Shown in pieces: positions 1,774-62,019 of a stretch of 64,000 bases of DNA; positions within the stretch are counted from its first letter, which is position 1; every line of letters begins with the position of its first letter. The translations under genes were made by a program, and so were the position numbers. The notes below the pieces were generated by a model. That model saw only the letters and a list, made by a program, of their open reading frames with translations, searched no databases and was not told the origin of the DNA. The stretch is from Cyathus striatus (lineage: Eukaryota > Basidiomycota > Agaricomycetes > Agaricales > Nidulariaceae): NCBI GenBank assembly GCA_025738555.1, contig JAOVFP010000009.1:3410001-3474000 (forward strand), in the 5' to 3' direction.

Positions 1774-1828
1774 AGTCGTCCTGATATGAGGGAGGATACT
1801 TTTCTAACACTTCCCATCATCATATAAC

Positions 1829-9043: not shown

Positions 9044-9046
9044 AGT

Positions 9047-34916: not shown

Positions 34917-34924
34917 GATTTGAG
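34917..34924. other. Target site duplication, left (GATTTGAG)
   Basis: GATTTGAG here and again at 62012-62019, exactly outside terminal sequences that align as inverted repeats. Eight bases fits Zisupton/KDZ-type insertion. Confidence 0.85.
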
Positions 34925-35330
34925 GAGGCATGTAGCAGCATATGTGTGGTTCCACAATGGTACATAGATTGAGCCAAACGAGAGGTACATGGGTATGCAC
35001 CTCTAACACTTAGAGGTACATGGGTATGTACCTGGACCTAACATAACATAGTAATTAGTCAGTGCAATGTTTAATACTGAAACCCATGTGGTGATATAAG
35101 ACTACATTTGTATTAGGAAAGTGGTCATACTATGCCACATTGTCAAAATTATAAATATGTGGTTCAGCTAGACCACAATTTTAACGTGCATGAACTACAT
35201 CCTGTTCTCACCTCGACGCCCAAAATTTGAATATCAAGCTACTATAAATGTTAGAATATTATTTTGCGGTTCACTTAGTTGACCATGTGTCTGTAGAATG
35301 TATAAATTGTAACGTGAAATGTAGTCTATA
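34925..35330 (+). repeat. Left terminal inverted repeat (unique part)
   Basis: Aligns with the complement of 61,600-62,011. It contains two direct copies of GAGGTACATGGGTATGYACC (34982-35003, 35013-35035), each an imperfect palindrome with GGTACAT/ATGTACC arms. These are candidate transposase binding sites. Confidence 0.85.
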
Positions 35331-38300
35331 AGAACTGGACTGGAATAATTGATGGGATGATCCATATATGGACAGATGTGATAAGTGTGGGATATATGTT
35401 TTCCGCGATCCGAAAATGACAGATGTGTCAGCACAAGAACGCAGCGCGACAAGACTAGATTCCTGTCATCTGCTGAATGTGGCAGAAGTAGGCAGGTTCT
35501 TCATCTGTAATTTTTCGTATTTATTAGTGCATTATGATGATGTATAATATGGAAAAATTATATTACGTTATATCTACATCTAACTGAATGGATCGTGAGT
35601 GTTCTATATTTCTAATAGCGATGTAGAGGATGTAAATTAACGAGATAGAAGTGGTGCATGTAGACTGGATATCCTATGATTGATGGGACATGCCATACGC
35701 GGACAGATGTGATAAGCGTGAGATATTTGTGTTGCGCATTCCGAAAATGACACATGACTCAGCACATGAACGCAGCGCGACGAGACTAGATTCCTGTCAT
35801 TTGGTGAATGTAGCGGAAGGAGACAAGTCCTTTATTTGTAATTTTTCGCATTTATTGTTGCATTATGAGGATGTATAATATGGAAAAATTATATTATATT
35901 ATATCTATATCTAAATTAACGGATCGTAGTTATTCTACATTTATAATAGCGACATAGAGGATGTAAATTAATGAAGTAGAAGTGGTGCATGTAGACCAGA
36001 TATCCTATGATTGATGGGATGTGCCATACGTGGACAGAACTGATAAGCATAGGATATTTGTGTTGTGCATTCCGAAAATAACAGATGAGTCAGCACATGA
36101 ATGCAGCGCGATGAGACTAGATTCCTGTCATTTGGTGAATGTAGCGGAAGGAGACAAGTCCTTCATTTGTAATTTTTCGCATTTATTGTTGCATTATGAG
36201 GATGTATAATATGGAATAATTATATTATATTCCATCTACATCTAAATTAATGGATCATAGTTATTCTACATTTATAATAGCGATGTAGAGGATGTAAATT
36301 AATGAAGTAGAAGTGGTGCATGCAGACCGGATATCCTATGATTGATGGGATGTGCCATACGCGGACAGAACTGATAAGCATAGGATATTTGTGTTGCGCA
36401 TTCCGAAAATAACAGATGAGTCAGCACATGAACGCAGCGCGATGAGACTAGATTCCTGTCATCTGGTGAATGTAGTGGAAGGAAGCAGGTTCTTCGTTTG
36501 TAATTTATTGCATTTATTAGTGCATTATGTGGATCTATAACATAGAATAATTATATTGCGAAATATCTACATCTAACGGAATAGATCGTGTGTTTCCTAC
36601 ATTTCTAATAGCGGAGCAGATGATCTAAATGAATGAGGAAGAAGTGGTGCATGTAGACTGGATATCCTATGATTGATGGGATGTGCCATACATGGATAGA
36701 TGTGATAAGAGTTGGATATTTGTGTTGTGTGTTCCGAAAATGAAAGATGAGTCAGCACATGAATGCAGTGCGACGAGACTAGATTCCTGTCATTTGGTGA
36801 ATGTAGCAGAAGGAGGCAAGATCTTCAACTGTAACTTATCGCATTTATTAGTGCATTATGAGGATGTATAATATGGAATAATTATATTATGTTATATCTA
36901 CATCTAACTGAATGGATCATGTGTGTTCTACATTTCTAATAGTGATTTGGAGGATGTAAATTAATGAGGTAGAAGTGGTGCATGTAGATTAGATATCTTA
37001 TGATTGATGGGATGTGCCATATGCGGACAGAAGTTATAAGCATGGGATATTTGTGTTGCGCATTCCGAAAATAACAGATGAGTCAGCACATGAACACAGC
37101 GCGATGAGACCAGTTTCCTGTCAACAACTGAATGTAGCGGAAGGAGGCAGGATCTTTCTTTGTATTTTTTCGCATTTATTAGTGCATTTTGGGGATCTAT
37201 CACATTAAATAATTATATTGTCAAATATGTACATGTATCTGTATGGATCGTATGAGTCCTACATTTCTAATGGTGAAGTAGAGGATTTAAATCAATGATA
37301 TAGAAGTGGTGCATGTAGACTGGATTTACCTTAATTGATGGGATGTGCCATACATGGATGGAAGTGATTAGCGTTGGATATTGGTATGCACGTTCTGAAA
37401 ATGACAGATGAGTCAGCACATGAACACAGCGCGACGAGACTAGGTTCCTGTCATCTGGTGAATGTGGCGGAAGGAGGCAAGTTCTTCATTTGTAATTTTT
37501 CGCATTTATTAGTGCATTATGGGGATGTATAATACAGAATAATTATACTATGTTATATCTACATCTAACTGAATGGATCGTGCATGTTCTACATTTCTAA
37601 TAGCGATTTAGAAGATGTAAATTAATGAGGTAGAAGTGGTGCATGTAGATTAGATATCTTATGATTGATAGGATGTGCCATACGCGGACAGAAGTGATAA
37701 GCGTGACATATTTGTTTTGCGCATTCCGAAAATAACAGATGAGTCAGCACATGAACACAGCGCGATGAGACCAGTTTCCTGTCAACAACTGAATGTAGCG
37801 GAAGGAGGCAGGATCTTTCTTTGTATTTTTTCGCATTTATTAGTGCATTTTGGGGATCTATCACATTAAATAATTATATTGTGTAATATCTACATCTATC
37901 TGTATGGATCGTACGAGTCCTACATCTATTGGTGAAATAGAGGATTTAAATCAATGATATAGAAGTGGTGCATGTAGACTGGATTTACCTTAATTGATAG
38001 GATGTGCCATAGGTGGACAAAAGTCATAGGCGTGGGATATTTGTTTCCTGCGTTTTGAAAATGACATATGAGTCAGCACATGAATGCAGCGCGATGAGAC
38101 TAGATTCCTGTCATATGATGATTGTAGCAGAAGGAGGCAAGAGTTTCATGTTTAATTTTTGCATTTATTCATGCATTATGGGGATCTATCATATAAAAGA
38201 GGTATATACTGAAATATCTACATCTATCTGAATGGACTGTGTGTTTCCTACATTTTTAATAGCGAAGTAGAGGATGTAAATTATTGAAGTGGGAGTGGTG

Positions 38301-40640
38301 CATGTAGACTGGATTTACCTTAATTGATGGGATGTGCCATAGGCGGACAGACATGATAGGCATGGGATATATGTTTTCTGCATTCTGAAAATGACATATG
38401 AGTCAGCACATGAACGCAGCGCAATGAGACTATATTCCTATCATATGATGATTGTAGCGGAAGGAGGCAAGATTTTCATTTTTAATTTATGCATTTATTC
38501 GTGCATTATGGGGATCTATTATATGAAATAGGTATATTCTGAAATATCTACATCTATCTGAATGAATCGTACGAGTCCTACATTTCTAATGGTGAAGTAA
38601 AGGATGTAAATTAAAGAGGTAGAAGTGGTGCATGTAGACTGGATTTACCTTAATTGATGGGATGTGCCATAGGTGGACAGAAGTGATAGGTGTGGGATAT
38701 ATGTTTTCTGCGTTCTGAAAATGACACATGAGTCAGCACATGAACGCAGCGCGACGAGACTATATTCCTATCATATGATGATTGTAGCAGAAGGAGGCAA
38801 GATTTTAATTTTTAATTTTTGCATTTATTCGTGCATTATGGGGATCTATCATATGAAAGAGGTATATTCTGAAATATCTATATCTATCTGTATGGACTGT
38901 GAATATCCTACATTTATAATAGAAAAGTAGAGGATGTAAATTAAAGAGGTAGAAGTGGTGCATGTAGACTGGATTTATCTTAATTGATGGGATGTGCCAT
39001 AGGCGGACAGAAGTGATAGGTGTGGGATATTTGTTTTCTGCGTCCTGAAAATGACACATGAGTCAGCACATGAACACAGCGCAACGAGACTATATTCCTA
39101 TCATATGATGATTGTAGCAGAAGGAGGCAAGATTTTCATTTTTAATTTTTGCATTTATTCATGCATTATGGGGATCTATCATATGAAAGAGGTATATTCT
39201 GAAATATCTACATCTATCTGTATGGACCGTGAATATCCTACATTTATAATTGAAAAGTAGAGGATGTAAATTAAAGAGGTAGAAGTGGTGCATGTAGACT
39301 GGATTTACCTTAATTGATTGGATGTGCCATAGGTGGACAGAAGTGATAGGCGTGGGATATTTGTTTTCCGCGTTCTGAAAATGACACATGAGTCAGCACA
39401 TGAATGCAGCGTGACAAGACTAGATTCCTGTCATCTGATGAATGTGGCGGAAGGAAGTAAGATCTTCATTTGTAATTTATCGCATTTATTAGTGCATTAT
39501 AGGGATCTATCATATGGAATAGGTATATTGTGATATATCTACATTTATCTTAAAGGATCATGCATATCCTACATTTATAATAGCAAAATAGAGGATGTAA
39601 ATTAATGAGGTAGAAATGGTGCATATAGACTGGATATCCTATGATTGATGGGATGTGCCGTATGCAGACAGAAGTGATATGCATGGGATATTTGTTTTCC
39701 ACGTTCTGAGAATGACAGATGCATCGGAAATTAAAACCAGTGCGACGAAACTAGATTCCTGTCATCTGGTGAATGTAGCGGAAGGAGGCAAGATCTTCAT
39801 TTTTAATTTTCGCATTTATTAGTGCATTATGGGGATCTTTTTTGTGTTTTCAAATGACACAGGAGTCAGCACATAAACGCAGCGCGACAAGACTAGATTC
39901 CTGTCATCTGGTGAATGTGGCGGAAGGAGACAATATCTTCATATTTTATTTGTCACATTTATTTGTGCATTATAGGGACCTAGCTTTATCTTATGTAGCA
40001 AGATATTGTGAAATATCTACGTATATTCGAACGGCACCAGTGTATCTTATTTTTATTATAAAGAAGTAGAGGATCTACATTAATGAGGTAAAAGTAGCAC
40101 ATGTAGACTGGATGCACCATAATTAATGTTATACGACATATGCGGACAAATGAATTAATGGTATGATGATTACTGTGTGATATTTGTCTGGAGCATTCAG
40201 ATAAAGAACAGATGAAGTCAGCATTTAAAACCAGTGCGACGAGACTAGCTTTCTGTCATTTGGTGAATGTGGCGGAAGGAGGCAAGTTATTTATTTTTAA
40301 ATGTTTCATACACATCAGCGCATTATCTGACTTTATCTTATGAAAAATATATATTAAGCAATATCTACATTTCTCTGAACGGCTCCAGTCTATCCTACGT
40401 TTCTAACGGTGAAATAGATGATCTACGTTAATGAGGTAGAAGTGGTGCATGTAGACTAGATTTCCCATGATTGATGGTATATGACATATGTTGACAAATG
40501 TGATAACCATGTTATTTTATGCTTTAAAATTTCACACACCAACTGATGAGTCAGCATCTGGAACCAGCGCGATGAGACTAACCTTCTGTCATCTCAACAA
40601 GGTGGCGGTAGGAGGCAAGATATTCTACATTTATTACATC
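35330..40640 (+). repeat. Left subterminal array, 17 units of ~331 bp
   Basis: The conserved segment GACTAGATTCCTGTCAT occurs near 35,451, 35,782, 36,113, 36,444, 36,775, 37,106, 37,437, 37,767, 38,098, 38,429, 38,759, 39,089, 39,418, 39,749, 39,890, 40,244 and 40,578. Spacing is 329-331 bp except for one truncated unit (39,749 to 39,890) and slightly longer inner ones. Other conserved parts are GAGTCAGCACATGAACGCAGC, GATGGGATGTGCCATA and GTGGTGCATGTAGACTGGAT. Units diverge most toward the interior edge. Many units keep an open frame of 62-80 aa, which I regard as a by-product of the repeat. Confidence 0.93.
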
Positions 40641-40705
40641 ACCAGAACTGTACAGTAGACACAGTAGACACAATATGATACAATGACACTGACAACCGAT
40701 CTCCT

Positions 40706-41713
40706 TTAGAAGTTGTAATCACTCCTCAACCATACCACTTTCCATTCCAGAAGTGGTTTCCTCCAGTCGTCATGCATCTCTGTCTGGTTATACCTGATTC
40801 CGAATAGTTCTAATCCCATTTTGTTAAAATTACCCCATGCTGAAGACATTGTTTGAGTCGATGGAGGCTGTGGCGACAATGTTGTGTTGTTCTTCGAAAG
40901 GTTCCTCCAGAATACCTCCAATTCATTCTCGCAGGGTAATTGTCATAGAAGCGATGTGATGTCGTCGGCCCATTTCTTAAAATCATCGTAGTTGAAATCT
41001 GAGTCGACGATATTGTTCATTTGTAGTGACTCCAAGCTTCCAACCATGCGTATGTGGTTGATTAACGACGGTAAAACAATTTCGATAAGATAATATGCGT
41101 ATTGCGCAGTTTCGTAATGCATGTATTGGTATCATGCGATCTGTGGTGTTATCCTGTACTTGTTTAAAACAAGGATATCTATATAATTTCACGTTATTAT
41201 TTGTGGTAATAACATGAAAGAAACCAAACGTACTTTTAACGTATTCTCTTAGACTCTTCGCTGGTAGAAAGTCCATTTCTGGAATCCAGCAATCGTCCGC
41301 CAAGCAGCTCTTGTTGTTATCCTGTGATTTGCACCTTTCACAGGTCGGGCCATGATTTCCAAAAGCCACGACACAATCAGCATCTATGAGCATATGTTAA
41401 GTAAATATTGTCACATTTAGAATACAGGATTTCCATACCATTGGTATGACAATCGTCGCACGTTACTTTGTTGATATAATCTTCTATTTTGTTCACCTCG
41501 CGATGCAACTGCGAGGTAACGATTGAATCCTTGTCAGGGTAGTCGAGGGCAAAAAGGCATGTTGGGAACTGAAAACCGTGAGTGTATGATTAAACATACT
41601 CACGAAAATTAACTTACTTTCATAGAGTTGATGATATACGATTTCAAGGGACCCTCTGACATTCCAACTGCGTAAAAGAATGCCCTTGTATTTTGGAATT
41701 GGTTGCTGGACAT
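40706..41713 (-). pseudogene. Cysteine-cluster family gene, left copy, two TGA stops
   Basis: Paralogue of the gene at 53,966-55,066, with the same four-exon plan. Exons are 41618-41713 (96 nt), 41439-41568 (130 nt), 41234-41383 (150 nt) and 40706-41178. Introns are 49-55 nt in the same phases. The N-terminus (AFFYAVGMSEGPLKSYIINS) matches QYFYVVGMKKGPLRSFILNT. The cluster is C-x2-C-x6-C-x2-A-F-x2-H-x3-C-x2-C-x8-C. The C-terminal WKVVWLRSDYNF matches WKVVWRQEDYDI. Two in-frame TGA codons (41132-41134 and 40943-40945) interrupt exon 4; the first falls where the paralogue has Arg. The frame is otherwise open to the TAA at 40706. Probably an inactivated gene. The cluster suggests zinc binding; function unknown. 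Confidence 0.8.
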
Positions 41714-42708
41714 GTTGGGTGGGTATGGGAAAAAAGATTTGGAGGTCAGGGAGTACGTTGAAAGACATCTATAAAGGACACTGACGAGTGTTTTAGTACA
41801 TGACAGACTCAGTTGGATATGTCTGTGTTTCAGGGATAAGAGTTAAAAAAACAGCGTTACGTACTGCTACCAAATAAAGATTCACGTGAATCAGTACTTC
41901 CGAACTTTATGCAGGATTCACAAGGTGACGTAGTGCACTTCTGTACGATAAGGTTTCTCTGTAGCTTTTTCTCATTAGAAGTATGTATGTTTGAGAACCA
42001 ACAGGTGTGATTGAAGCCACTTTACCTTATTAGCCTCATAGCGACATACATGCATGTTACCAGAACAACAAATCTGCATTTCGGATTATTCCGAATTATT
42101 TCTCTTGAGAATCATTGGAGTCATCGAACTAGTGACATATGGGCATGTTACCAGAACAACAAATCCGCATTTCGGATTATTCCGAATTATTTCTCTTGAG
42201 AATCATTGAAGTCATCGAACACGGTCATTTTCTCTTTTCTGGTTATAGCTTAGCATCTATTATCATTTTTTTATCACCGGTATTTTATCTTTTCTGGGTA
42301 TAGCAATTCAACTCACAGAACACCGTTATTTTTTCTCCTTTGACATATCAATGCCACATTGCCGCCATCTTTTTCAATTTCTTCAAATTTCTATACCCTT
42401 GATGGTACATATTTCTTACACCATGCCTTTCCGATTTTTTTTTTCCGGGTATAGCTCATCATTCAAGTCGATTATCTTTTGTTATCACCCCTTATTTTAT
42501 CTTTTCTTGGCATAGCTTCGAGGTCAGCTCACAGAATGCCGCATTGTAACCCTTTCGACATATCAACGAAATATCACTGCCATCTTTTCAATTTTCCATA
42601 TCTATGCACCCATGACATACATATTTTATTCATTGCCTTGCAAATGGCTAATCAAATTATTTAATTGTTCATGTCAACAGATTACCACAATGAAGAATAA
42701 TAGTATTC
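41714..42708. other. Spacer with two kinds of short direct repeat
   Basis: 42043-42129 and 42134-42220 are near-identical 87-bp copies (GCATGTTACCAGAACAACAA, then TCGGATTATTCCGAATTATT, an internal palindrome). They differ at one CpG (CCGC against CTGC). Between 42,220 and 42,600 the motif TTTTCTGGGTATAGC recurs four times with CACAGAA.(A/G)CCG. No gene. Confidence 0.6.
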
Positions 42709-45700
42709 CTAACTACTATTATGCACTGCATTATATCCAGCAAGCTTTTGCATTTTGGTGCGGTTCCAGATACAAAGAAAAGTCTTCATGTACAATGTAG
42801 CACGGTATTGCCCCATGTAGCTGACTGACTTGCAGATACGCACCATCACTGAGTTACCACACTCGGCAGCACTTGAGTTGAGACCTTTTAATCGGGGATC
42901 TGCAGTAACGGATCGTTTCAGAAAGCAGGCTGTTGAACATTTTTTATGACCTGCGGCATGGAAGTGGTCAATTAGAAACTTAGTCTCGGAAAAAAAATCC
43001 CCTTCTCATGTCATACAGTAAGGACCCAGAGCGCAAGCGAAGTCATAAATCACCTGCTTTGGTGGAACTCTCCATTGTGTATAGAGAGCCAAGAAAACAT
43101 CATCACGGCCTTCGCTGCTTGGCATAGAATGAAAACCATAGCAGATGGAATGTGTACACCAGGCGGCCATGATTCCTCCAGTCAGGCGTTGGGGTGAGTA
43201 CTGAGCATAGTACTTCGAACACTCAGCACCCCAGTCTTGTCCACCTTTATCTTGTGACCTATCGTGTTTCAACCCAGGATAGATTGGCCTATGTCATATC
43301 TGTGGCATGCTGTAGCAACTACCTGTCTAATATTACGGGTCGCAAAGAAAGAAAATGATTAAGCGAAAACAGACACTTACCAATTTCCAGTCATCTTTTG
43401 GAGTTTCCGAAACAGGACTAGATTGAGTAGACAGACTTTGTGCTATAAGCTTATCCAACGTCTCATGTGCACCGCTTTCTATCCAGATGCAAACATCAAT
43501 TAGGTCTTCCGAATATGTGTTTTCTTTGGTATATTCATGTCGTAAAACCAGATAGATTGATGGAATGTTTACCAATCGAGAGAGGGCGTCATCACTTTTC
43601 ATGTGATTGAAATTTCTAAGGGCGTCATAGCCAAGCCTGTTCACCATCTGTACAATCGATTCTTCTGCTGCTATCTGTTGAAACAATAGTTAATATCTAA
43701 ATATTTACTGAGATAATGATATCCAAACCTCCGAAAACAAATAGACATAACTATCATCTGGCCAAGTGTCTCCCATGAATAAACGTGCCGCTAGACGTCC
43801 CAATGCCGGATTGACGTCAGGTAGTTGCAAAAGCATACTTTCTTCGTCATCACCACGAATGAAAGAATTATTAAGATGTGTTTTTTTGGTCATGACAGTA
43901 CATATTAGTTTCCGTAGCTTACAGTCCAGTATGAGCTGCTGCTTGCTGACATAAGACACTTTGTCTTTTCGTTCCGAATGTGGTGATATAGCTGTCAGTG
44001 GCTTAATGGAGGAATGGAGCTGCTTGCAGCTGAACGAGATGGAGACGCCATCAAAAATTACATTATCTGGAGCCAGACCGCAGATATGACACCACATATC
44101 ATTTTCTAAACATAAGAGATTGGCATATGTGAACCAAGCGGCACGGAAGATGAAATCATTGATGAAAGGGATCCCGGTTCCATTATCTGTGTAACCACAA
44201 CTGACTTCCAAAATGAAAGCCACGAAAGGAGTAGGAGAAATGGTGTAAGCCGATGTATAGCGCTCCAGAAGCTCATGTGTAAATAAGTAACGGTTATTGA
44301 GATTCAGGATTTCGATATCTCTGCAGTCGGGACCGATGAATCAGTCTGAGCAAAGACAGTTGTTACACTTCCGAAGTTGAATTTCGGTCACATGTGCACC
44401 GCTAAGCCCGTATACAGTACATGATTTGATCACCATTGGTCCTGAATTTTCAAGTCCAGAACTGCATATACATCGCATATGTTCACCTAATTCAATAAGA
44501 AGAGGTGGTGGAGGTAGTGGCCTTGGCTTTTTATGGTAGAGCTTGGCGTCTGTTTCCAAACGCGCCCAGCTAGGAGGCATTATCGGTAGATACAATATCC
44601 CTTTGTCTGGATCAGAATCAGAGTGGAATTGTTGACCTTGTATGGAATGTGTCAGAAGGGAAACATGTATGAAATATTAGCTCACTTGAGTTCTCCAAGA
44701 GGTTGTAATTGAGTGCAATGTCATCTCGTGCCTCAGGATCGCAGTGCAGGATTTGCTGGAGCTTGTGCCACGTTTTAATAATATGCGGGCACATTGACAG
44801 GTTACATTTTTGGCATTCCCAGCTGCCACTACTGTCATCCAAGCCTTCATGTGATATAATAATTCGATCAAGGAGACCTGCTCCCATATTCACTGAAAAC
44901 AAATGATACGATGTATTGGACTCTGGAAATATTTCGCGATGAAACAGTGTCACATCAGAAGGTACTTTATATGAATGAGTTAGTTATGGGATATGTGTTG
45001 AAGTTGCGAAAAAATACCATTGGGAATATCATTACTATTCGAGAACCTTTCCTTACCAAAGACATACAGAAATTTAGCATGTACACAAGGTGACTTTTTG
45101 GAATTGCAGGTGCACACTGCAGTCATATCTCCATACACTAGCCACCATTGCAGATGAAACCAACGATTCTAAATTTTGGTCATCAGTAATACCATACACA
45201 GAAGATAGATCTATGAACCACTTACTGGCATACTGTTATTCTTTGTGGAATCCCAACCTTGAACAAGAAACAACTCCTTGCTAACTCGTTCAAAACCAAT
45301 CCCACCGTAAAACACGCTGACATGGTACAAATAAAAGATGTTGTCGAGATCTACTTCACTGAAAGGCGCACGGCCGTCATTTAGGAAGGGAAAATTATTG
45401 AGAATGTATTCTTCGTGCATCCCATCAGACCGCAATGGTAGACCATCGTCATATTCCTGGAGCACATCTGAACCTCCATGGATAATCTGAACTAATTCAC
45501 TGGATACTTCATCATTCCTCGACACAGACATAGGGTTGCGTGATCGATGTTGACCAGTATTAGAGCGTGGGTTCTTCACCAATCGCTGTTTTTTTTGAGG
45601 GGATGAGACTGGCTCATAAGGCCCAGATGACGAAACTGACACAGACGCTGAAGCCGACAAAAATGACGATAATGATAGCATTGAGGATTTAAAAAGTCCT

Positions 45701-50033: not shown

Positions 50034-52295
50034 ATGGCAAAGTCGTCCTCCACTCCTCTGGCCACTCCCCATCCCATGAACATCAGATGGTCGTCTAGAT
50101 TGCAGAATACCTCATCTCAGCCTTCCACTAGTCTTTCCAAGTGCAAGATAACTAAGAAACAAAATTTATCAACTCCAGTCACGGAACAAAACCCTGGGGG
50201 AGACACGACAAAGCCAGCTTCATCTCCAAATGTATGTCATTATCTAAATATATGTTCCATTTGCCTTATTTCCCCATTTCCTGAGGTTTCTTACCTTCCT
50301 CCATTATATCCAGTGGTTGTAAGCGTCTTTTTATCCATACATTTATTTAATAATGAAAAATGATATTAGGATCCCCCGGGAAAATCCTTGGTCATGTCAA
50401 TACTGACCAAAGTAATTACAACGTCTTCTGGTCTTGATGTTGTTAGCAAAGGAGGCAATAGCATGGTGCCTATCGCTACTGGTCTTAACATCGCATCGGA
50501 TGAAGAAATGGGCAAGGATATGGGCAAGGGCCTTGACGTTAATAGCGAAGGAGGAAATGACGAGCTGCCTACTGCTACTCCTCCTAAGGCTGCGTCGGAA
50601 GTAGCCATGGGCAAGTTTCTTCCTAGTGCTGCATTAAAATTATATTAACCTATATTAAATAGACCTTGACGTTGATAGCGAAGGAAGCAGTAAGGAACTG
50701 CCTACCACTACTGCATCAGATGCAGATATAGGCAAGGATCTCATCATTGATAGCAAAGCAGAAAATAATTTTCTGCCTACCGCTATTGCTGCTAACACTG
50801 GGTCAGGAGCAGCCATGGGCAAGTATCTTCTTAGCGCTATGTTTAACTTATACTGACGTATATTAAATAGACCTTGACGCTGATAGTGAAGGAGGCAATA
50901 AAGAACTGCCTACCACCACCACATCAGATGCAGATATAGGCAAGGACCTCATCAGTGATAGCAAAGCAGAAAATAATTTTCCGCCTACTGCTATTGCTGC
51001 TAATGCTGGGTCGGGAGTGTTAGTGGGCAAGTATTTTCCTAGCGCTATGTTGAACTCATACTGACATATATTGAATAGACCTTGATGTTCATAGCACTAT
51101 TCCACCCGCCACTGCTCCTACCACTACTATCGCTACTGATCCAATCGCTGGGTCAATCTCCCAGGAAGGTGACGTTCCCAAAGTTCGTCAAACATTAGCA
51201 TCAAATTATATCCCGGATGCCTTAGCAAAATTAAAAGCTACAAGTCACAAATATTTTTCTGATGAAGGGCTTTACATCTGTATGTGTGATAAGATATTGC
51301 ACCCACAGAAACCTGTATTAACATACAACGTAGCCCCACGGAACAATGGAAATTGTGATCCAATCCCATACTCTTATGAGACTGGGTATTCTAAAAATAG
51401 ATCGACATTTGTCAATACAGCACCAACCGATTTGAAGGGTAGCTTTAGTATGTTTCTGCTTTTTGTTTGATATTATATATTGTTCTAATATTTAATGATA
51501 GCTGAGCTAAAGCAGTTCATTGACGATGGCCCAAACATACTTTCCTCAAGCACTTGACATTTAGTGACAGCAAAAAGAGAAGAAGGACTGTCGCAACTGC
51601 TCGGACTGCCGCAACTGCCTGCTACTGTATATTCTGACCGACTTCTAGCCCTAGAGGCGTTCGCTACGAATGTTAACAATACGATCTGCCTGTCGCATCG
51701 TAGATCTAAGGCTACCAAACAGAACAGAGAAGAAAATAGCTCAAATTTTCTCGTTCTTGGGGTTCCAGGGGCAAAGAATACCATTAAGGGTCAAAATGAT
51801 TCGAAGCGGAGCGCGGAAGATTCCCATAGGATACTGTACAATCTTAAAAATTCTGACACCCTCGACTGTGGATGCCTCATGGAAACAGCCATACGCGAGC
51901 TGCAATGGTATCATTCTTGGAATGTCTCTGGGCTCGTTGAAGGTATGTTAATTATTTGGGTTACCTCCCTCTGATATACTGAAGTCAGTACAGGTATGGT
52001 AGTTACCAAAGATTTTTCCTGGAAAGACATTGTGACTCCTTGGATGCGAGATATGATCGCGCAGAACATCTCAAGGGAAACCTTGCTCATGGCTAATGAT
52101 TACTTCACAGGAGACGTGGAGATTATGATTGATCAGGATGAGGAGAGGAGGCACATGACGATGGTAACTCGCAATATCACACATCTGAATGAACTTGCAG
52201 CTAGGAGCAACCGCACACAGCAGTTTGTACTCATGTCTATAGATGTAGATTCCTATGATCGCATGTCTGTCGAAGAAAGGATGGGTATAATTTAG
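50034..52295 (+). pseudogene. Unknown element gene with tandem GC-AG exon units
   Basis: ATG 50034. Exon 1 is Ser/Thr/Pro-rich. Then come repeated exons (208-bp period, starting 50663, 50871 and 51079) encoding DLD.DSEGG.KELPTTT-type sequence. Their introns fit a GC donor (G|GCAAGT) and ATAG acceptor; only GC splicing keeps the frame. The remainder (about 51,080-52,295, at least two more introns, including 51941-51993) encodes YNVAPRNNGNCDPIPYSYET, a Leu-rich stretch, and a C-terminal domain with FSWKDIVTPWMRDMIAQN. A TGA at 51555-51557 interrupts an otherwise open frame. I do not recognise the family; no TET/JBP-type dioxygenase HxD motif was found. Nuclear role and link to transposition are inference from location only. 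Confidence 0.6.
50663..51078 (+). repeat. Two complete 208-bp exon+intron tandem units
   Basis: Each unit reads ACCTTGACG.TGATAG, coding sequence, GGGCAAGT donor, CTATGTT.AACT.ATACTGAC branch region and ATT.AATAG acceptor. A third copy starts at 51079 and soon diverges. A unit-like start without an intron precedes them (GGCCTTGACGTTAATAGC near 50,530). Confidence 0.75.
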
Positions 52296-52613
52296 TTTAA
52301 TAATTGGGGGAGCTTGCTTCCCCTATTTGTCTGCAGAAGGACCCTGTGTAGTGTGCATGGCAACACATGTGTGGCTGTATGTCTGTTGACCCAAAATAGA
52401 ATTCATGTTTCGATTTGTTGATGTCTATGTCCCATTATGGATGTTTGCAATATGCTCAATGTGTGGACTTAATACGTTCCTTAAAATTCTCTGATAACTA
52501 TATTCAGATTGACTTACCTCAAGGGAAAATGGTGAACTGTTCCGCATGAATATAAAAAACGATATAAATTGAAGGGCTGCACTGACCATTCTCCATTCCA
52601 TCTACTCTTGAGC
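52296..52613. other. Spacer between unknown gene and cysteine-cluster gene
   Basis: No gene seen. It should hold the terminator of the first gene and the promoter of the second. Confidence 0.4.
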
Positions 52614-53452
52614 ATGCCTTGGTACCTTACTTCTGATGAAAACAATTCCCGAAATTACATCGACTTCGACATTGATTTCCCACGCCTCCAACTTTTTACC
52701 TTGTACACGACAAGGGTAAGATCTCTCAATCCCCTCCGTTTACATACGCTAATTTCCGTCTAGCATTTGACCGAGTTCCGCCCACCAAGGGTGATACAAT
52801 TGTCACCGTTCTGGATTGTCAATAAATTGCTAAAATTCTTCATATGCTTCCATCGTTCATGGCGTTGTCAGACATGCATCGCTTCAAATAATTTCTGTCA
52901 GTTTGACTTCGAGCATCCATATACGTATTGTTATCAATGTGAAATAGAACATCGAATCGATTGCAAATTTCCAGCCGAGATGGCTAATATCTTTAAAGTT
53001 CCACCTCTACACATTTTGCCTCATCACACAATCGAAGTAACAAATAACAATAAGTCTTCATTTGACACACCATTTATTTTAACTTTCATAACTAAGAAAA
53101 TTTTTAAGATGCGAATTGTATACTTTTTGCCTACAACCGCACAAGCCACCGGTACGCTGATCGGTATCAGTGGGCGGAGTTCTATCGATATATATATTAC
53201 CTCGTTGAGGAAGTTGTTCCTTCTCTTCGACGATTGCAGCAACTCCCAGTATCAGTCCTTCTGGCAAATAAATTAATTCTACCCAATGACGATCCCGAAG
53301 GATATGACTACATAGGATGGACGGCACATAAAGCTCTTCAATGGTTGCCACCTAAAGAAGAGGTACTAACTTATAGAAGGATGTTGTTTGAATGTATACA
53401 CAACAAAGGACTACGATTAGTGGATTTTAGTTTCGATAGCGGCGTGTATTAA
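52614..53452 (+). pseudogene. Cysteine-cluster family gene, middle copy
   Basis: Third member of the family. Exon 1 is 52614-52715 (34 codons); intron 52716-52763 is 48 nt, as in the right copy. Exon 2 encodes RCQTCIASNNFCQFDFEHPY then CYQC...C: C-x2-C-x6-C-x2-D-F-x-H-x4-C-x2-C-x7-C, aligning residue for residue with the right copy but without its second intron. The next exon (from 53109) has ADRYQWAEFYRYIYYLVEEV, like the right copy's RYLYLNFEYARYALF segment, and ends TAA 53450-53452. It lacks the WKVVW C-terminus. The only acceptor for the last exon leaves the frame one base out relative to the GTAACA donor at 53037, so this copy may be frameshifted. The Cys/His pattern suggests zinc binding; function unknown. 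Confidence 0.6.
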
Positions 53453-53965
53453 ATGTAGAAAATAATGTTTGACACTTTGTCACCATAGTACAGCTATCTT
53501 TGCTTCCTTTTGTCATTACAGTGGCAAATGAAGGGCAGTTTTCTCTGTGGATGCGACAACTTCAAATGGAGAACACATAGATATGACGAAACAAGCCCCA
53601 TCGGAGCTATTACTATACTGGTCTTTATCTGGTCCCATTAGAATTACTTAAAATAGATAATCTATATCCGGCATCGTCTCACATTACATGTCTCGGTGAT
53701 ACTAATAGGCTAGAGGAAAACAAGGAAAACTTGAATTTAGGCACATCTTTGGTGAGCCGTAGTGTTTTAACTCGTATCCCTGAAACACGGACATATCCAG
53801 CTCAGTTGCACATCAAAACACTCATCCTCGTAACTTCCCTGCTCACTATTCCTTCCTCCGTACACCAACCCATCCTCTTAAAACACTCGTCCTCATCACT
53901 TCCCGACTCACTATCTCCCTACACCAACCCACCCTCTCTCAGTATCTACTTCCAGTCTCGCCAGC
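53453..53965. other. Spacer with CT-rich ~60-bp repeat before the right cysteine-cluster gene
   Basis: Two copies of an ACACTC.TCCTC.T.ACTTCCC, ACTCACTAT, TACACCAACCCA block lie at about 53,817-53,935, just upstream of the ATG at 53,966. It is probably a pyrimidine-rich promoter/5' UTR. The open frame through it is a shadow. Confidence 0.5.
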
Positions 53966-55066
53966 ATGCAGGAAACTATCTCCACCAAGGTCCCTCAATA
54001 TTTTTATGTGGTCGGCATGAAGAAAGGGCCACTCCGGAGCTTCATTCTCAACACCATTCAAGTGAGCCTTATTCTCGGAGTGCGTCTTGTCTAACTGGTT
54101 GATCATTAGGGACCCTATGTGCAGCCATACTCCAATTTGGGGCAAGGCATGACTCCCGTCTGGCATATGCTGAAAAATATAGTTAATGAACTGAGAGAGT
54201 ACACAAGGAGGAATGCATGCGATAAATGCTTCGAAGCAGGTATGTCAATCGAGTCAATTAAATGTTGATTATACTAAGTCTACTTTCACGTTCTGGTAGA
54301 GGAGACCTGTACAATTGACTTCGTCCACGGCCCCCCTAACTGTTCTCAATGCAGTATTGAAGGAATACAGAACTGTCATGGGATAGGAAGTCATCCAAAA
54401 CTCGCCCTCCTTCCTGTCATGAGCCGCGACATTATCCACGAAAGTAAGAATATATTATAATAGATTACGAATTGAATTAACACCAATTATGCAGATATGT
54501 CCATACTACTGGAGTATGGTAATCCTCCCATTGTAGCGCGGTATCTGTACCTCAATTTTGAATATGCGCGCTATGCGCTCTTTATTCTAAAAATTGTAGT
54601 TCCGGCCCTCGACTTGCACATCATAGGGTTGTTTGATAAGGAAATACTTCAGATGTATGGTCTGGTCAACGACACATATGATGTTGACCAATACTTGCAG
54701 TGGAGCAATGAAGCACAACAATTGGCGTCCAAATTTCCTGCGCCCCCAATGTTGGAAAGGTTTTGGGAGGACCTCGTAACCCAAAAGACTCCGCCAATGC
54801 CACCTCTGGCATCCAGCACCAATGTCAAACAGGAAGTCCCATCTACCGAAGAAGATATCTCTGGCTGGTACAGAATACGGTCCAGTGGTGTTAATGGATG
54901 GTTGCCATCTTCAAGAGGAGAATACAACTTGAATGAAGTGGGTAAGAAGCTGACAGGGGTTCGTTTTGATTATGATGGAATGTACGAAGAATGGAGCACA
55001 TTGAAGCCGGACTGGAAGGTAGTTTGGAGGCAGGAAGATTACGACATACATTATTTAAAAATATGA
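53966..55066 (+). CDS. Cysteine-cluster family gene, right copy, intact
   Basis: Exons 53966-54061, 54110-54239, 54300-54443 and 54495-55066 join in phase to give 313 aa without a stop. The N-terminus has QYFYVVGMKKGPLRSF. A central cluster CDKCFEAEETCTIDFVHGPP then CSQC...C follows. An aromatic helical region comes next (RYLYLNFEYARYALFILKIV), then a Pro-rich linker and a C-terminal segment ending WKVVWRQEDYDI. It is the only one of three paralogues with a clean frame. It sits at the inner edge of the right repeat array, mirror to the left copy. The Cys/His layout suggests zinc binding, possibly DNA or protein contact. I cannot name the family; a role in recognising the nearby subterminal repeats is speculation. 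Confidence 0.8.
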
Positions 55067-55377
55067 TTGATACGCAGAACGAACAATAGATGTAATATAA
55101 AATAAATGACAAATAATGTATTTCTTGAAATTGCTGAAATAAGTAATCACGTAGTTCGCTATCACAAACATTATCTCTATAATTATTGCTTAAGATAAAG
55201 CAGAACGACACCCTAATAAATATTGGAGTGTTGGCAAGCAATACCTCAGCAAATGAGCGTTATTTGTACATGATTGGCAAAGGCGTTAGAAATCTGTTGT
55301 TCTCTGAATGCTCAAGATAAAAATAACACGGGAATCATCACACTATAAATATTTCACAATATATGTAATCTATATGA
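55067..55377. other. Spacer between last gene and right array
   Basis: AT-rich, with no gene. It holds the 3' end of the cysteine-cluster gene. Confidence 0.4.
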
Positions 55378-58300
55378 TAGATCCCCATTATGCAATAATA
55401 AATATGAAAAGTGAAAATTAAGACCTTACCTTCTTCCGCCGCATTCACCACATGAGAGGAATCTAGTCTCGTCGCGCTGCATTCATGTGCTCACTCATGT
55501 GTCATTTTCGGAATGCGCAAAACAAATATCCCAGGATTATCTCATCTGTTTGGGCATGGCACATCCCATCAATCATAGGATATACAGTTTACATGCACCA
55601 CTTCTTCCTCGTTAATTAAAAGCCTCTACTTCGCTATTAGAAATGTAGGAAATGCACGTTCCATTCAGTTACATGTAGATATTTCACAACATAATTGTTC
55701 CATGTGATAGATATCCATAGTTCACTAATAAATGTGAAAAATGACAAACGAAGATCCTGCCTCCTTCCGCTACATTATCCTGATGACAGGAATCTAGTCT
55801 TATTGCGCCCTGCTCATGTGCTGACTAATCTGTCATTTTCAGAACACCAAAACAAATATCCAATGCTTATCAAATCTGTCCGCATATGGCACATCCCATC
55901 AATCTTAGAATATCCAGTCTACATGCACCGCTTCTACCTTATTAATTTACATCCTCTACCTTGCAATTGGAGATGTAGAACACGCACCATCCATTAAGTT
56001 AGATGCAGATACTCCACAATATAATGATATTATATGATAGATCATCATAATGCTCTGAAAAATGCGAAAATTAAAAAATTAAGATCTTGTCTCCTTCAGC
56101 CACATTCACCAGATGACAGGAATCTAGTCTCGTCGCGCTGCATTCATGTGCTGACTCATGTGTTATTTTCAGAACACGCAACACAAATATCACATGCTTA
56201 TCACATCTGTCCGCGTATAGCACATCCCATCGATCATAGGATATCCAGTCTACATGCACCACTTCTTCCTCATTCATTTAGATCATCTACTTCACTATTA
56301 GAAATGTAGGAAACACATGATCTGTTGAATTAGATGTAGATATTTCACACTATAATTATTCGATACGATAGATGCCCATAATGCACTAATAAATGCAAAA
56401 AATTACAAATGAACATCCTGCCTCCTTCCGCTACATTCACCAGATGACAGGAATCTAGTCTCATCGTGCTGTGTACATGTTCTGACTCATGCGTCATTTT
56501 CCGAATGCGCAAAACAAATATCCCATGCTTATCACATCTCCGCGTATGGCACATCCCATCAATAATAAGATATCCAGTCTACATGCACTACTTCTACCTC
56601 ATTCATTTAGATTATCGACTTCGCTATTAGAAATGTCGGAAATGCATGATACATTTAGTTAGATGTAAATATTTCACAATATAATTATTCGATATGATAG
56701 ATCCTCATAATGCACTAATAATTGTGAAAATTACAAATGAAGATCCTGTGTCCTGCCGCTACATTAACCAGATGACAGGAATCTAGTCTCGTCGCGCTGG
56801 GTTCCTGTTCTGACCCATCTGTTATTTTCGGAATGCACAACACAAATATCCCACGCTTATCAATTCCGTTCATGTATGGCACATCGCATCAATCATAAGA
56901 TATGCAGTCTACATGCACCACTTCTACCACATTAATTTACATCCTCTAAATCGCTATTAGAAATGTAGAACACGCACGATCCATTCAGTTAGATGTAGAT
57001 ATAACATAATATAATTATTCCATATTATACATCCTCATAATGCACTAATAAATGCAAAAAAATTACAAATGAAGATCTTGCCTGCTTCTGCTACATTCAC
57101 CAGATGACAGGAATCTAGTCTCGTCACGCAGCATTCATGTGCTGACTCATGTGTCATTTATGAAATGTGCAAAACAAATATCACACTCTTATCTCATCTG
57201 TCGGCATATGGCATATCGCATCAATCATAGGATATCCAGTCTACATGCACCACTTCTTCCTCATTTATTTAGATCATCTATGTCGCTATTAGAAATGACT
57301 TTTACCTCATTCATTAGATCACAAACTTCGCTATTACATGTAGATATTTCGCAATATAATTATTCGATATGATAGATCCCCATAATGCACTAATAAATGC
57401 AAAAAATTACAAACGAAGAACCTGCTTCCTTCTGCTACATTCACCAGATGACAGGAATCTAGTCTCATCGCGCTGGGTTCATGTGCTGACTCATCTGTCA
57501 TTTCGGAATGCGCAACACAAATATCCCACGCTTATCACTTCTGTCAGCATATGGCACACCACATCAATCATAGGATATCCAGTCTACATGCACCACTTCT
57601 TCCTGATTCATTAAGATCATCCATGTCGCCATCATAAATGTAGGAAACACAGGATCTATTCTGTTAGAAGTAGATATTTCACAATGTAATTATTCTATGT
57701 TATAGATCCACATAATGCACTAATAAATGCGAAAAATTACAAACGAAAAACCTGCCTGCTTCCACTACATTCACCAGATGAGAGGAATCTAGTCTCGTCG
57801 TGCTGGGCTCATGTGCTGACTCATGTGTTATTTTCAGATTGAGGAAAACAAATATATACCATGTGTATCAATTCTGTCAGCATATGGAACATCCCATCAA
57901 TTAAGGTAAATCCAGTCTACATGCACCACTTCCACCTCATTAATTTACATCCTCTACATCGCTATTAGAAATGTAGAACACGCACGATCCATTCATTTAG
58001 ATGTAGATATAACATAGTATAATTATTCCATATTATACATCCCCATAATGCACTAATAATTGCGAAAATTACAAATGAAGACCCTGCCTCCTGCCGCCAC
58101 ATTCACCAGATGGCAGGAATCTAGTCTCGTCGCGCTGTGTTCATGTGCTGACTCATCTGTTATTTTTTGAATGCACAACACAAATATCCCATGCTTATCA
58201 CTTCTGTCCGCGTATGGAACATTCCATCATTCATAGGATATCCAGTCTACATGCACCACTTCCACCTCATTAATTTACATCCTCTACATCGCTATTAGAA

Positions 58301-61300
58301 ATGTAGCACACGCACAATCTGTTCATTAGATGTAGATATAACATTGTATAATTTTTCAATATTATACATACTCATAATGCAACAATAAATGCGAAAAATT
58401 ACAAATGAAGAACTTGTCTCCTTCCACCACATTCACCAAATGACAGGAATCTAGTCTCGTCGCACTGCATTCATGTGCTGACTCTTGTGTCATTTTCAGA
58501 ATGTGGAAAACAAATATCCCACACCTATCACTTCTGTCCGCCTATGGCACATCCCATCATTTAAGGTAAATCCAGTCTACATGCACCACTTCTACCTCAT
58601 TAATTTACATCCTCAACTTCACTATTAGAAATGTAGGAGTTGTACGATCCATTCAGATAGATGTAGATATTTCACAAAATACCTATTTCATATGACAGAT
58701 CCCCATAATGCACGAATAAATGCAAAAATTAAAAATGAAACTCTTGCCTACTTCTGCCACATTCACCAAATGACAGGAATCCAGTCTCATCGCGCTGTGT
58801 TCATGTGCCAACTCATGTGTCATTTTCAGAATGTGGAAAACAAATATCCCATGCCTATCACTTCTGTCCGCCTATGGCACATCCCATCAATTAAAGTAAA
58901 TCCAGTCTACATGCACCACTTCTTCCTCATTATATTACATCCTCTGCTTCACTAATAGAAATGTAGAAAAAGCAGTCTATATATATAGATGTAGATATTT
59001 CAGAACATACCTATTTCATATGATGGATCCCCATAATGCACGAATGAATGCAATAAATTAAACATGAAAATCTTGCCTGCTTCCACTACATTCACCAGAT
59101 GACAGGAATCTAGTCTCGTCGCGCTGGGTTCATGTGCTGACTCATCTATCATTTTCGGAACACGAAACGCAAATATCCCACGCTTATCACTTCTGTCAGC
59201 ATATGGCACATCACATCAATCATAGGATATCCAGTCTACATGCACCACTTCTTCCTGATTCATTTAGATCATCCACGTCGCTATTAGAAATGTAGGAAAC
59301 ACATGATCACCACTTCTATCTTATTAATTTACATCCACTACTTTTCTATTATAAATGTAGGAAATTCATGGTCCATACTGATAGATGTTGAATATACCTA
59401 TTTCATATGATAGATCCCCATAATGCATAAATAAAGGCAACAAATTAAATGTGAAGTTCTTGCCTTCTTCCGCCACATTCACCAGATGACAGAGATCTAG
59501 TCTTGTCACACTGCATTCATGTGCTGACTCATGTGTTATTTTCAGAATGCGCAACACAAATATCATACGCTTATCACTTCTGTCCGTGTATAGCACATCG
59601 CATCAATCATAGGACATCCAGTCTACATGCACCACTTCTTCCTCATTCATTTAGATCATGTACTTCACTATTAGAAATGTTGGAAACACATGATCCGTTG
59701 AGTTAGATGTAGATATTTTACAATATAATTATTCGATACAATAGATGCCCATAATGCACAAATAAATGTGACAAATTAAACATGAAAATCTTGCCTGCTT
59801 CCGCTACATTCACCAGATGACAGGAATCTAGTCTTGTCGTGCTGGGTTCATGTGCTGACTCATGTGTCATTTTCAGATCAATGAAAACAAATATACCATG
59901 CATATCAATTCTTTCTGCCTATGGCACATCCCATCAATTAAGGTAAATCCAGTCTACATGCACCACTTCTATCTCATTAATTTACATCCACTACTTTTCT
60001 ATTATAAATGTAGGAAACTCACGGTCCATACAGATAGATGTAGATATTTAAGAATATACCTATTTCATATGATAGATCCCTATAATGCACAAATAAATGC
60101 GACAAATTAAACATGAACATCTTGCCTACTTCCGCCACATTCACCAGATGACAGGAATCTAGTCTCGTCGCGCTGGGTTCATGTGCTGACTAATCTGTCA
60201 TTTTCGGAATGTGCAACGCAAATCCCACGCTTATCACTTCTGTCGGCATATGGCACATCCCTTTAATCGTATGATATCCAGTCTACAAGCACCACTTCTT
60301 CCTCATTCATTTTGATCATCCACGTCGCTATTAGAAATGTAGGAAACACAGGATCTATTCTGTTAGAAGTAGATATTTCGCAATGTAATTATTCTATGTT
60401 ATAGATCCACATAATGCACTAATAAATGCGAAATATTACAAACAAAAAACCTGCCTGCTTCTGCTACATTCACCAGACAACAGGAATCTAGTCTCGTCGC
60501 GCTGGGTTCATGTGCTGACTCATCTGTCATTTTCGGAACGCACAACGCAAATATCCCATGCTTATCACTTCTGTTGGCGTATGGCACATCACATGAATCA
60601 TAGGATATCCAGTCTACATGCATCACTTCTTCCTCATTCATTTAGATCATCTACTTCACTATTAGAAATGTAGGAAACTCATGATCTGTTGAGTTAGATG
60701 TATATATTTTATAATATAATTATTCGATACGATAGATGCCCATAATGCACAAATAAATACAACAAATTAAACATGAAGATCTTGCCTGCTTCCGCTACAT
60801 TCACCAGATGACAGGAATCTAGTCTCGTTGCACTGGGTTCATGTGCTGACTCATCTGTCATTTTCGGAATGTGCAACGCAAATATCCCATGCTTATCACT
60901 TCTGTCAGCATATGGCACATCGCATCAATCATAGGATATCCAGTCTACATGCACCACTTCTTCCTGATTCATTAAGACCATCCACGTCGCTATTATAAAT
61001 GTAGGAAACACAGGATCTATTCTGTTAGAAGTAGATATTTCACAATGTAATTATTCTATGTTATAGATCCACATGATGCACTAATAAATGTGAAAAATTA
61101 CAAACGAAGAACCTGCCTGCTTCCACTACATTCACCAGATGAGAGGAATCTAGTCTCGTCGCACTGGGTTCATGTGCTGACTCATGTGTTATTTTCAGAT
61201 TGAGGAAAACAAATATACCACGCATATCAATTCTGTCAGCGTATGGATCATCCCATCAATTAAGGTAAATCCAGTCTACATGCACCACTTCCACCTCATT

Positions 61301-61600
61301 AATTTACATCCTCTACATCGCTATTAGAAATGTAGAACACGCACGATCCGTTCATTTAGATGTAGATATAACATAGTATAATTATTCCATATTATACATC
61401 CCCATAATGCACTAATAATTGCGAAAATTACAAATGAAGACCCTGCCTCCTGCCGCCACATTCACCAGATGGCAGGAATCTAGTCTCGTCACGCTGCGTT
61501 CATGTGCTGACTCATCTGTTATTTTCGCGCGCAACCCAAATAACTCACGCTTATCACATCTGTCCGTATATGGGGCATCGCATCAATTATTCAAGTCCAG
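55378..61600 (-). repeat. Right subterminal array, 19 units of ~331 bp, inverted
   Basis: The complement of the left array unit. ATGACAGGAATCTAGTCT or close variants occur near 55,455, 55,786, 56,116, 56,447, 56,776, 57,109, 57,450, 57,782, 58,113, 58,443, 58,773, 59,103, 59,484, 59,820, 60,151, 60,482, 60,812, 61,143 and 61,474. Most spacings are 329-333 bp; the unit at 59,103-59,484 is longer through a partial duplication. Units differ often at CpG positions within CGTCGCGCTGCGTTCATGTG. Confidence 0.93.
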
Positions 61601-62011
61601 TTCTTATAGACTACATTTTACATTACAATTTATACATTCTATAGACATATTTTCAACTAAGTATACCAAAAAATAGTATTCTAGAATCTATACTAACTTG
61701 CTATATATATCTTGGGAGTCGAGGTGAACATAGGATGTGGTTTGTGCATGCCAAAATTGTAGTTTAGTAGAACCACATATTCTTATTTTTTTGAAAATGT
61801 AGCGTAGTATGGCCACTTTCCTAATACAGATATAGTCTTATATCGCTACAAGTGTTTTACTATTAAACATCACACTGACTAATATCTAGCTTACCATGCG
61901 TTGAGGTACATGGGTATGTACCTGGTTGTTTACAGGTACATACCCATGTACCTGTCATTTGGTATATTTTATGTACCACTCTGGAACGGCACATCACATA
62001 CTACCTATCTG
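61600..62011 (-). repeat. Right terminal inverted repeat (unique part)
   Basis: Inverted match to 34,925-35,330. It contains GAGGTACATGGGTATGTACC (61903-61922) followed, after a short loop, by the opposite orientation AGGTACATACCCATGTACCT (61934-61953), so together they form a long hairpin. Confidence 0.85.
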
Positions 62012-62019
62012 GATTTGAG
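62012..62019. other. Target site duplication, right (GATTTGAG)
   Basis: Second copy of the 8-bp sequence at 34917-34924, immediately outside the right end of the giant element. Confidence 0.85.

What the first reader, a model, noticed from the sequence alone, without database searches (positions are those of the whole stretch)
34925..62011. 27-kb KDZ transposon with a perfect 8-bp target duplication
The two ends (34,925 and 62,011) align as inverted repeats and are flanked by GATTTGAG on both sides. Inside are mirror-image satellite arrays and a KDZ transposase gene plus five other genes. KDZ elements are known in fungi, but this combination (long inverted ends made mostly of tandem repeats, with a multi-gene cargo) is unusual and the boundaries are sharp enough to define the unit.
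Basis: partly seen in the sequence, partly recalled or inferred. Interest (0 to 1): 0.93.

Follow-up and report, generated by a model that had tools for sequence, protein, structure and literature searches.

The report
Giant mirror-ended fungal KDZ transposon family
This 27-kb stretch is one copy of a large jumping-gene family in what is probably a fungal genome, whose two ends mirror each other as satellite DNA plus a matching pair of genes, an unusually large and symmetrical design for this class of transposon.

Summary
The element spans 34,925-62,011 (27,087 bp) between two GATTTGAG copies. Its ends are ~430-bp inverted repeats (329 of 422 aligned bases identical), followed inward by mirror-image 331-bp satellite arrays. 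It is one of a family: 41 left termini genome-wide, and 21 copies paired with both ends (17.6-47 kb). Of those 21, 18 have a perfect 8-bp target duplication, two 7 of 8, one none; no mispaired control of 380 gave 8 of 8. The transposase is a divergent KDZ with a CxC4 cluster, under purifying selection (dN/dS 0.07 in the catalytic exon).

New here: the mirror symmetry goes past the satellites. Genes D and B at the two inner edges are inverted paralogues sharing a 42-bp upstream box. Six of 21 copies carry the interior inverted relative to the ends; a tree of left ends fits one event, after which both forms spread. The window copy is decaying by CpG deamination and its transposase has premature stops. 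I model five genes, not six, one weak.

Best reading: an autonomous, foldback-like giant KDZ transposon, a new variant of a known kind. That the arrays are a protein-binding platform is inferred. No empty site was found.

The parts
34917..34924 (.). left target site duplication GATTTGAG
62012..62019 (.). right target site duplication GATTTGAG
34925..35347 (+). left terminal inverted repeat, 423 bp; a 20-bp palindrome (AGGTACATGGGTATGTACCT) starts 59 bp (one mismatch) and 90 bp (exact) from the end
61588..62011 (-). right terminal inverted repeat, 424 bp; the same palindrome starts 59 bp (exact) and 89 bp (four mismatches, centre reversed) from the end
35348..39838 (+). left 331-bp satellite array (diverged units continue to about 40,625)
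55349..61587 (-). right 331-bp satellite array, mirror image of the left
40712..41799 (-). gene D, Cys-rich, inverted paralogue of gene B (extent from the match to B); two in-frame TGA in the matched stretch of this copy
41807..41848 (-). 42-bp box upstream of gene D, 38 of 42 identical to the one upstream of gene B
42709..45810 (-). KDZ transposase gene (about 900 aa, 7 exons modelled on the sibling copy): CxC4 cluster and KDZ catalytic domain, the latter in the last exon; a weak SWIM match (E 0.001) in one single frame only. Two premature stops in the last exon of this copy
46105..47931 (+). gene C, about 457 aa modelled on the sibling; two CxxC...CxH-like motifs and a charged, coiled-coil-like C-terminus (both by eye). 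dN/dS 0.42 sibling against inverted copy; the window has 20 extra nt near the 3' end
50034..53580 (+). gene A, weak model; contains the 208-bp array (50,565-51,085), modelled as a tandemly duplicated 144-nt exon plus 64-nt intron
53765..53806 (+). 42-bp box upstream of gene B
53966..55066 (+). gene B, 313 aa, 4 exons, Cys-rich; same model open in the window and in the inverted copy; the sibling differs by one nucleotide and fits a same-length model with another splice. dN/dS 0.27-0.34

Best explanation
A copy of an autonomous giant cut-and-paste DNA transposon of the KDZ superfamily with foldback-like ends. Shown: sharp ends, 8-bp target duplications at many sites, a KDZ/CxC4 transposase under purifying selection, mirrored arrays, a mirrored gene pair (D, B), and two interior orientations whose left ends fall on two sides of one branch, both forms having inserted with their own duplications. 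Inferred: the symmetrical ends (terminal repeat, satellite, D or B gene) come from an old inverted duplication; the transposase cuts at the termini, guided by the palindromes 59-110 bp from each end; the arrays, and perhaps the Cys-rich D and B proteins, help hold two distant ends together; recombination between the inverted arrays flipped the interior once. The window copy is an older, probably methylated and silenced insertion that can no longer make its own full transposase.
For: Target duplications: 18 of 21 pairs at 8/8, 2 at 7/8; 0 of 380 mispaired controls at 8/8, 4 at 7/8. 41 left termini, reversed-pattern control 0. Transposase: CxC4 E 4.5e-28, KDZ 24.6 bits, 28.0 at the window locus; Y-D, C, HxxxH, C and E shared with 14 other KDZ matches that I picked from the 30 fetched; dN/dS 0.07 in the last exon, 0.20 over the model. 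D/B: BLASTP E 1e-14, tblastx E 2e-38 in collinear inverted order with a 42-bp box. Satellite: 82 of 82 listed hits inside paired copies are mirror-oriented. Inversion: 6 of 21 pairs, one change on the tree at 96/89. CpG: 198 of 230 derived changes on the window's branch against 19 of 74 on the sibling's.
Against: KDZ is just under the Pfam cut-off in the spliced model and unseen in the single-frame scan. No similarity between terminal repeats and satellite above shuffles, so shared binding sites are not shown. No empty site. One pair of 21 lacks a duplication. The 47-kb copy C4:234583-281542 has B and the D-like match on the same strand, no listed KDZ exon, and its left end groups nearest the inverted copies although its A and B lie in the window's order. 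The AlphaFold model of the catalytic exon failed (pLDDT 36). Subgroup placement was not possible. Nothing shows that any copy moves today.
Confidence: 0.87

Rival explanations
1. A non-autonomous foldback family moved by the transposase of another KDZ lineage in the genome; the resident KDZ gene is a passenger.
For: PF18758 has 159 matches in the genome, most of them scoring far above this family's (150 of 169 candidates scored), and a related group lies at 72-74% DNA identity (8 loci). The window's own transposase has two premature stops in its last exon, and the sibling differs by one nucleotide in the gene from both other copies.
Against: The KDZ exon is listed in 20 of 21 both-ended copies, three of them partial or split; dN/dS is 0.07 in the last exon and 0.20 over the model between two subfamilies; four copies of the family are listed without a stop in the matched stretch.
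Confidence: 0.09
2. Large segmental duplication or palindrome formed by recombination, not a transposon.
For: Mirror arrays and mirrored genes; some copies are rearranged, e.g. C12:3959729-3981544 has right-type ends on both sides and no duplication.
Against: The same termini with a site-specific 8-bp duplication at 18 places. The left flanks of 29 other copies show no similarity to other fetched loci that reaches the insertion point.
Confidence: 0.02
3. A Starship-like giant cargo element moved by a tyrosine recombinase, with the KDZ gene nested inside.
For: Size and gene number.
Against: A Pfam scan of 77 interior reading frames at E 0.01 gave no tyrosine recombinase; 8-bp duplications and terminal inverted repeats fit a DDE-type enzyme; the tested genes are nearly constant among copies.
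Confidence: 0.01

Closest known systems
KDZ transposons of fungi (Kyakuja-Dileera-Zisupton): Cryptococcus KDZ1-KDZ3 (PMC12810828, passages seen) and TET+ Dileera, Kyakuja and Zisupton (PMC12730594, abstract, first of three parts of the results, and passages seen)
   Same: KDZ catalytic core, an associated cysteine cluster, terminal inverted repeats, 8-bp target duplications (KDZ1; KDZ2 and KDZ3 gave 4-8 bp).
   Different: KDZ1-3 are about 9-11 kb with 139-241-bp repeats and a CxC1 cluster; here 17.6-47 kb, about 430-bp repeats, CxC4, long mirrored satellite arrays and a mirrored gene pair. No TET/JBP domain was found in the interior frames.
Foldback-type elements: Tetris of Drosophila virilis (PMC4079207, passages seen) and Galileo (PMC3688188, abstract and discussion read)
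   Same: Long inverted ends containing internal tandem repeats (about 220-bp units in Tetris); rearranged forms (Tetris).
   Different: [quoted passage not shown] here the family encodes a KDZ transposase and several other genes. Transposase binding to the internal repeats is reported for Galileo, untested here.
Large elements in mushroom genomes: Marasmius oreades TE library with a maximum of about 42 kb (PMC9674265, passages seen; PMC8290104, passages and results section read)
   Same: Size class; that genome also has KDZ elements.
   Different: The class of the 42-kb element is not stated in what I saw; no satellite or mirror structure is mentioned there.
Starships (PMC12134995, search listing; PMC13066641, passages seen)
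   Same: Giant multi-gene fungal mobile elements.
   Different: Moved by a tyrosine recombinase; none was found here.

Membership tests
KDZ superfamily | KDZ transposase domain (PF18758) | tested here: met
   28.0 bits, over the 26.6 cut-off, at the window locus; 24.6, just under, in the spliced sibling model; not seen at E 0.01 in 77 single frames; Y-D, C, HxxxH, C, E conserved with 14 other KDZ matches. A divergent member.
KDZ superfamily | associated cysteine cluster (CxC type) | tested here: met
   CxC4, 98.1 bits, E 4.5e-28
KDZ superfamily | 8-bp target site duplication (Dileera, Zisupton; 7 bp in Kyakuja, PMC12730594) | tested here: met
   18 of 21 at 8/8, 2 at 7/8, 1 at 0/8
KDZ superfamily | place within Kyakuja, Dileera or Zisupton by phylogeny | not tested
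   no reference transposases on hand; the protein database was switched off
Foldback-type architecture | long inverted ends containing internal tandem repeats | tested here: met
Foldback-type architecture | transposase binds the internal repeats (as in Galileo) | not testable with these tools
   the one computed hint, a shared terminal and satellite motif, was not found above shuffles
TET+ KDZ transposons | TET/JBP dioxygenase gene inside | tested here: not met
   no Tet_JBP match at E 0.01 in 77 interior frames of 60 aa or more; short exons could be missed. The genome-wide family search rang nowhere, controls included, and says nothing
Starship | tyrosine recombinase captain gene | tested here: not met
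   none at E 0.01 among 77 interior frames

The most novel reading that the evidence does not exclude
An autonomous foldback-class giant KDZ transposon: its ends are an ancient inverted duplication of terminal repeat, satellite and a Cys-rich gene; the mirrored D and B proteins and the arrays form a two-ended synaptic platform that lets a cut-and-paste transposase move 20-40 kb; and the same mirror arrays act as an inversion switch that founded a second lineage.
Probability: 0.35. Interest if true: 0.82.

Novelty: new variant of a known kind. Interest (0 to 1): 0.6.

Why it matters
DNA transposition is reported to lose efficacy above about 6 kb of cargo (PMC6431247, passage seen), and foldback structures have been suggested to arise by loss of the transposase gene (PMC4079207, passage seen). 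A multi-copy, both-ended, transposase-encoding family of 17.6-47 kb with mirrored satellites is a natural case for testing how such size is tolerated, how satellites arise and stay inside transposons, and how inverted arrays restructure an element. The CpG decay of this copy against a far less affected sibling gives a within-genome test of methylation-linked silencing.

Tried and rejected
Empty site: the joined flanks matched only the two flanks and one partial repeat, so no second allele is in the assembly. Left flanks of 29 other copies against all fetched loci: no match reached an insertion point. Shared motifs between terminal repeats and satellite: none above shuffles. The first pattern search, GATTTGAG plus a guessed inner motif, was uninformative. 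The 15.5-kb interior as one DNA query was not scored; two short queries replaced it. The first target-duplication script read minus-strand copies the wrong way round and was redone. In one search the rows for the whole KDZ gene, gene D and gene A are out of frame (9-23 stops), and the C row is so in its last part; they are discarded. One search recounts by sibling codons: KDZ model 0.20 and C 0.42 are used; its D and B rows are out of frame after a one-nucleotide difference of the sibling and are discarded, so B rests and D on its match to B. The 901-aa transposase model comes from the sibling, which has one nucleotide more in the gene than both other copies, bridged by a probably false intron. 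The fold of the catalytic exon failed, so no fold search was made. PADLOC, tRNA and Rfam searches were empty. Conserved blocks in the satellite resemble binding sites, but in a CpG-decaying copy stretches without CpG look conserved anyway, so I claim nothing from them.

Full report
What is there. The window is G000:C9:3410001-3474000 of an unnamed 107.45-Mb genome in 24 contigs; that it is a fungus is inferred from its gene content. The element runs from 34,925 to 62,011, flanked by GATTTGAG at 34,917-34,924 and 62,012-62,019. Its terminal 423/424 bp are inverted repeats with 329 identities, 93 mismatches and 3 gaps; the score is 463 against at most 53 in 100 shuffles. Inside each end is a 331-bp satellite array (35,348-39,838 and 55,349-61,587); mean unit identity is 81.2% in the left array, 82.5% in the right and 81.2% between them. 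A 20-bp palindrome, AGGTACATGGGTATGTACCT or a variant of it, lies 59 and 89/90 bp from both ends.

A family with repeated boundaries. The left end matches 40 scored places (of 83 candidates), 33 of them starting at base 1; two of the 40 are right ends matching across. The right end has 27 rows covering 1-424 (40 of 79 candidates scored). A 29-base left-terminus pattern with up to 3 mismatches occurs 41 times, its reversed control never. I paired left and right ends by hand, on the same strand and up to 47 kb apart: 21 copies, 17,553 to 46,960 bp; the other ends stayed unpaired, so incomplete or rearranged copies exist. Flanks agree at 8 of 8 bases in 18, at 7 of 8 in two, and at 0 of 8 in one (C2:1153879-1177149); among 380 mispaired flanks of the first 20 copies none reached 8 of 8 and four reached 7. 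C12:3959729-3981544 has right-type ends on both sides and no duplication; it is not among the 21.

Transposase. On the minus strand at 42,709-45,810 lies a gene of about 900 aa, modelled in seven exons on the sibling copy. It has a CxC4 cluster (E 4.5e-28) and a KDZ domain at 24.6 bits, under the 26.6 cut-off; the window locus scores 28.0, and the scan of 77 single frames at E 0.01 found CxC4 (two frames) and a weak SWIM (E 0.001, one frame) but not KDZ. Y-D, C, HxxxH, C and E are shared with 14 other KDZ matches of the genome, picked from 30 fetched, at 16-22% identity. Between the sibling and the inverted copy the last exon has 14 silent and 4 replacement changes, dN/dS 0.07; the whole model gives 0.20. 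In the window copy the last exon has two premature stops. The sibling has one nucleotide more in the gene than both other copies. Four copies of the family are listed without a stop in the matched stretch.

Other genes. Gene B (53,966-55,066, 313 aa, 4 exons) is open with the same model in the window and the inverted copy; the sibling is one nucleotide shorter there and the script fitted a same-length model with another splice. Its dN/dS is 0.27 (sibling against inverted copy, over a gap) and 0.34 (window against inverted copy). Gene C (46,105-47,931) gives 0.42 with no internal stop in the sibling's codons of all three copies, but the window has 20 extra nt near its 3' end. Gene A (50,034-53,580) is weak; its 208-bp array is modelled as a repeated 144-nt exon and 64-nt intron, 2.5 units here and 3.5 in the inverted copy.

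The mirror includes a gene. Genes D (40.7-41.8 kb, minus) and B are paralogues (BLASTP E 1e-14), collinear in inverted orientation (tblastx E 2e-38, coding pieces 32-57% identical) with a 42-bp upstream box 38 of 42 identical. At up to 12 mismatches the box occurs only at these two places in the window and in the fetched stretches of the two other copies. Among the 21 paired copies a D-like match is listed in 21, B in 20, the KDZ exon in 20 (three partial or split) and the A segment in 20 (listings are capped, so absences are not proof). Of the 20 with both, B and D lie on opposite strands in 19 and on the same strand in one, the 47-kb copy C4:234583-281542. The 17.6-kb copy C4:651195-668747 has no listed A or B. 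So the order terminal repeat, satellite, D or B gene is the same from both ends, as an old inverted duplication would leave it.

The interior has flipped. In C1:279252-302353 the interior aligns in reverse to the window while the ends do not, and the alignment runs about 1.4 kb into the array, so that breakpoint lies in the array. By strand of the KDZ exon and A segment against the ends, 15 of 21 copies are like the window (the 47-kb one by A alone) and 6 are inverted. A tree of 25 left ends (20 paired, 5 unpaired with a called orientation; five fetched ends without a call left out, the left end of the C7 pair not fetched whole) needs one change, with the 8 inverted ones on one side of a branch at 96/89; the 47-kb copy is their nearest neighbour. 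The root is not known, so which form is older is open. The six paired inverted copies have 8-of-8 duplications (five, C7), so they most likely moved as units after the flip.

Decay of this copy. The interior is about 97% identical to the sibling at C1:8218758-8247420, evenly along its length apart from the 208-bp array. Of 501 differences 432 are transitions, 346 of these in a CpG context. With the inverted copy as outgroup, 198 of 230 changes on the window's branch are CpG C>T or G>A, against 19 of 74 on the sibling's. This is the mark of deamination of methylated CpG; methylation itself was not measured.

Satellite. An exact 21-base piece of the unit occurs 341 times; of the 100 places listed, 82 lie in paired copies, all 82 mirror-oriented; the other 18 lie in three groups on C3, two beside left ends and one beside gene A and B matches. 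The 241 unlisted places were not examined.

How it most likely works. A KDZ DDE-type transposase cuts at the termini and inserts with an 8-bp stagger (inferred from the duplications and the family). The paired palindromes near both ends are its likeliest binding sites (inferred). The arrays may raise the number of binding sites or hold the ends together, as proposed for Galileo (PMC3688188, abstract and discussion read), but no shared motif was found. The Cys-rich D and B proteins may be end-binding partners; this is a guess from their position and cysteines.

Known or new. KDZ elements with 8-bp duplications are known: Cryptococcus KDZ1-3 of 9-11 kb (PMC12810828, passages), Dileera and Zisupton (PMC12730594, abstract, part 1 of the results, passages). 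Foldback ends with tandem repeats are known from Tetris (PMC4079207, passages). My library searches on KDZ, Dileera, Zisupton and Kyakuja, on KDZ with satellite or inverted repeats, on Zisupton with tandem or subterminal repeats, on foldback transposons, on interior inversion and on giant basidiomycete DNA transposons showed, in the titles and abstract starts listed and the passages I opened, no giant, satellite-ended KDZ element. I therefore call it a new variant of a known kind.

Noticed in passing
window 1195-9567: A Ty3/gypsy-like LTR retrotransposon on the minus strand: RNase H and aspartyl protease domains between two copies of the same 20-bp-period repeat at 1195-1246 and 9516-9567, probably in its LTRs.
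   Followed up: partly
window 50565-51085: A 208-bp array inside gene A that the model reads as a tandemly duplicated exon-intron unit (144 + 64 nt), 2.5 units here and 3.5 in the inverted copy, so the protein length would vary.
   Followed up: partly
window 41807-41848 and 53765-53806: A 42-bp box, 38 of 42 identical in inverted orientation, upstream of genes D and B whose proteins are only about a third identical.
   Followed up: partly
window 48121-49235: A 1.1-kb stretch with 181-bp tandem repeats, not aligned in the inverted copy C1:279252-302353; possibly a nested insertion.
   Followed up: no
G000:C16:100240, C19:301535, C5:1433168, C6:5390507, C9:3668665, C3:2830076, C4:6520250, C12:2428554: A second, related KDZ group, 72-74% identical in DNA to this family's catalytic exon; whether it has the same ends was not looked at.
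   Followed up: no
G000:C12:3959729-3981544: A rearranged copy with right-type ends on both sides, one close to each subfamily, and no target duplication.
   Followed up: partly
G000:C4:234583-281542: A 47-kb copy with a perfect target duplication, no listed KDZ exon, and B and the D-like match on the same strand; it looks rearranged inside.
   Followed up: no
window 32031-32405: A piece of an OPT oligopeptide transporter gene 2.5 kb from the insertion (ten of the 18 longest frames of the left side were scanned).
   Followed up: no
window 11144-11250: A hexanucleotide CAGTAA array of about 18 copies.
   Followed up: no
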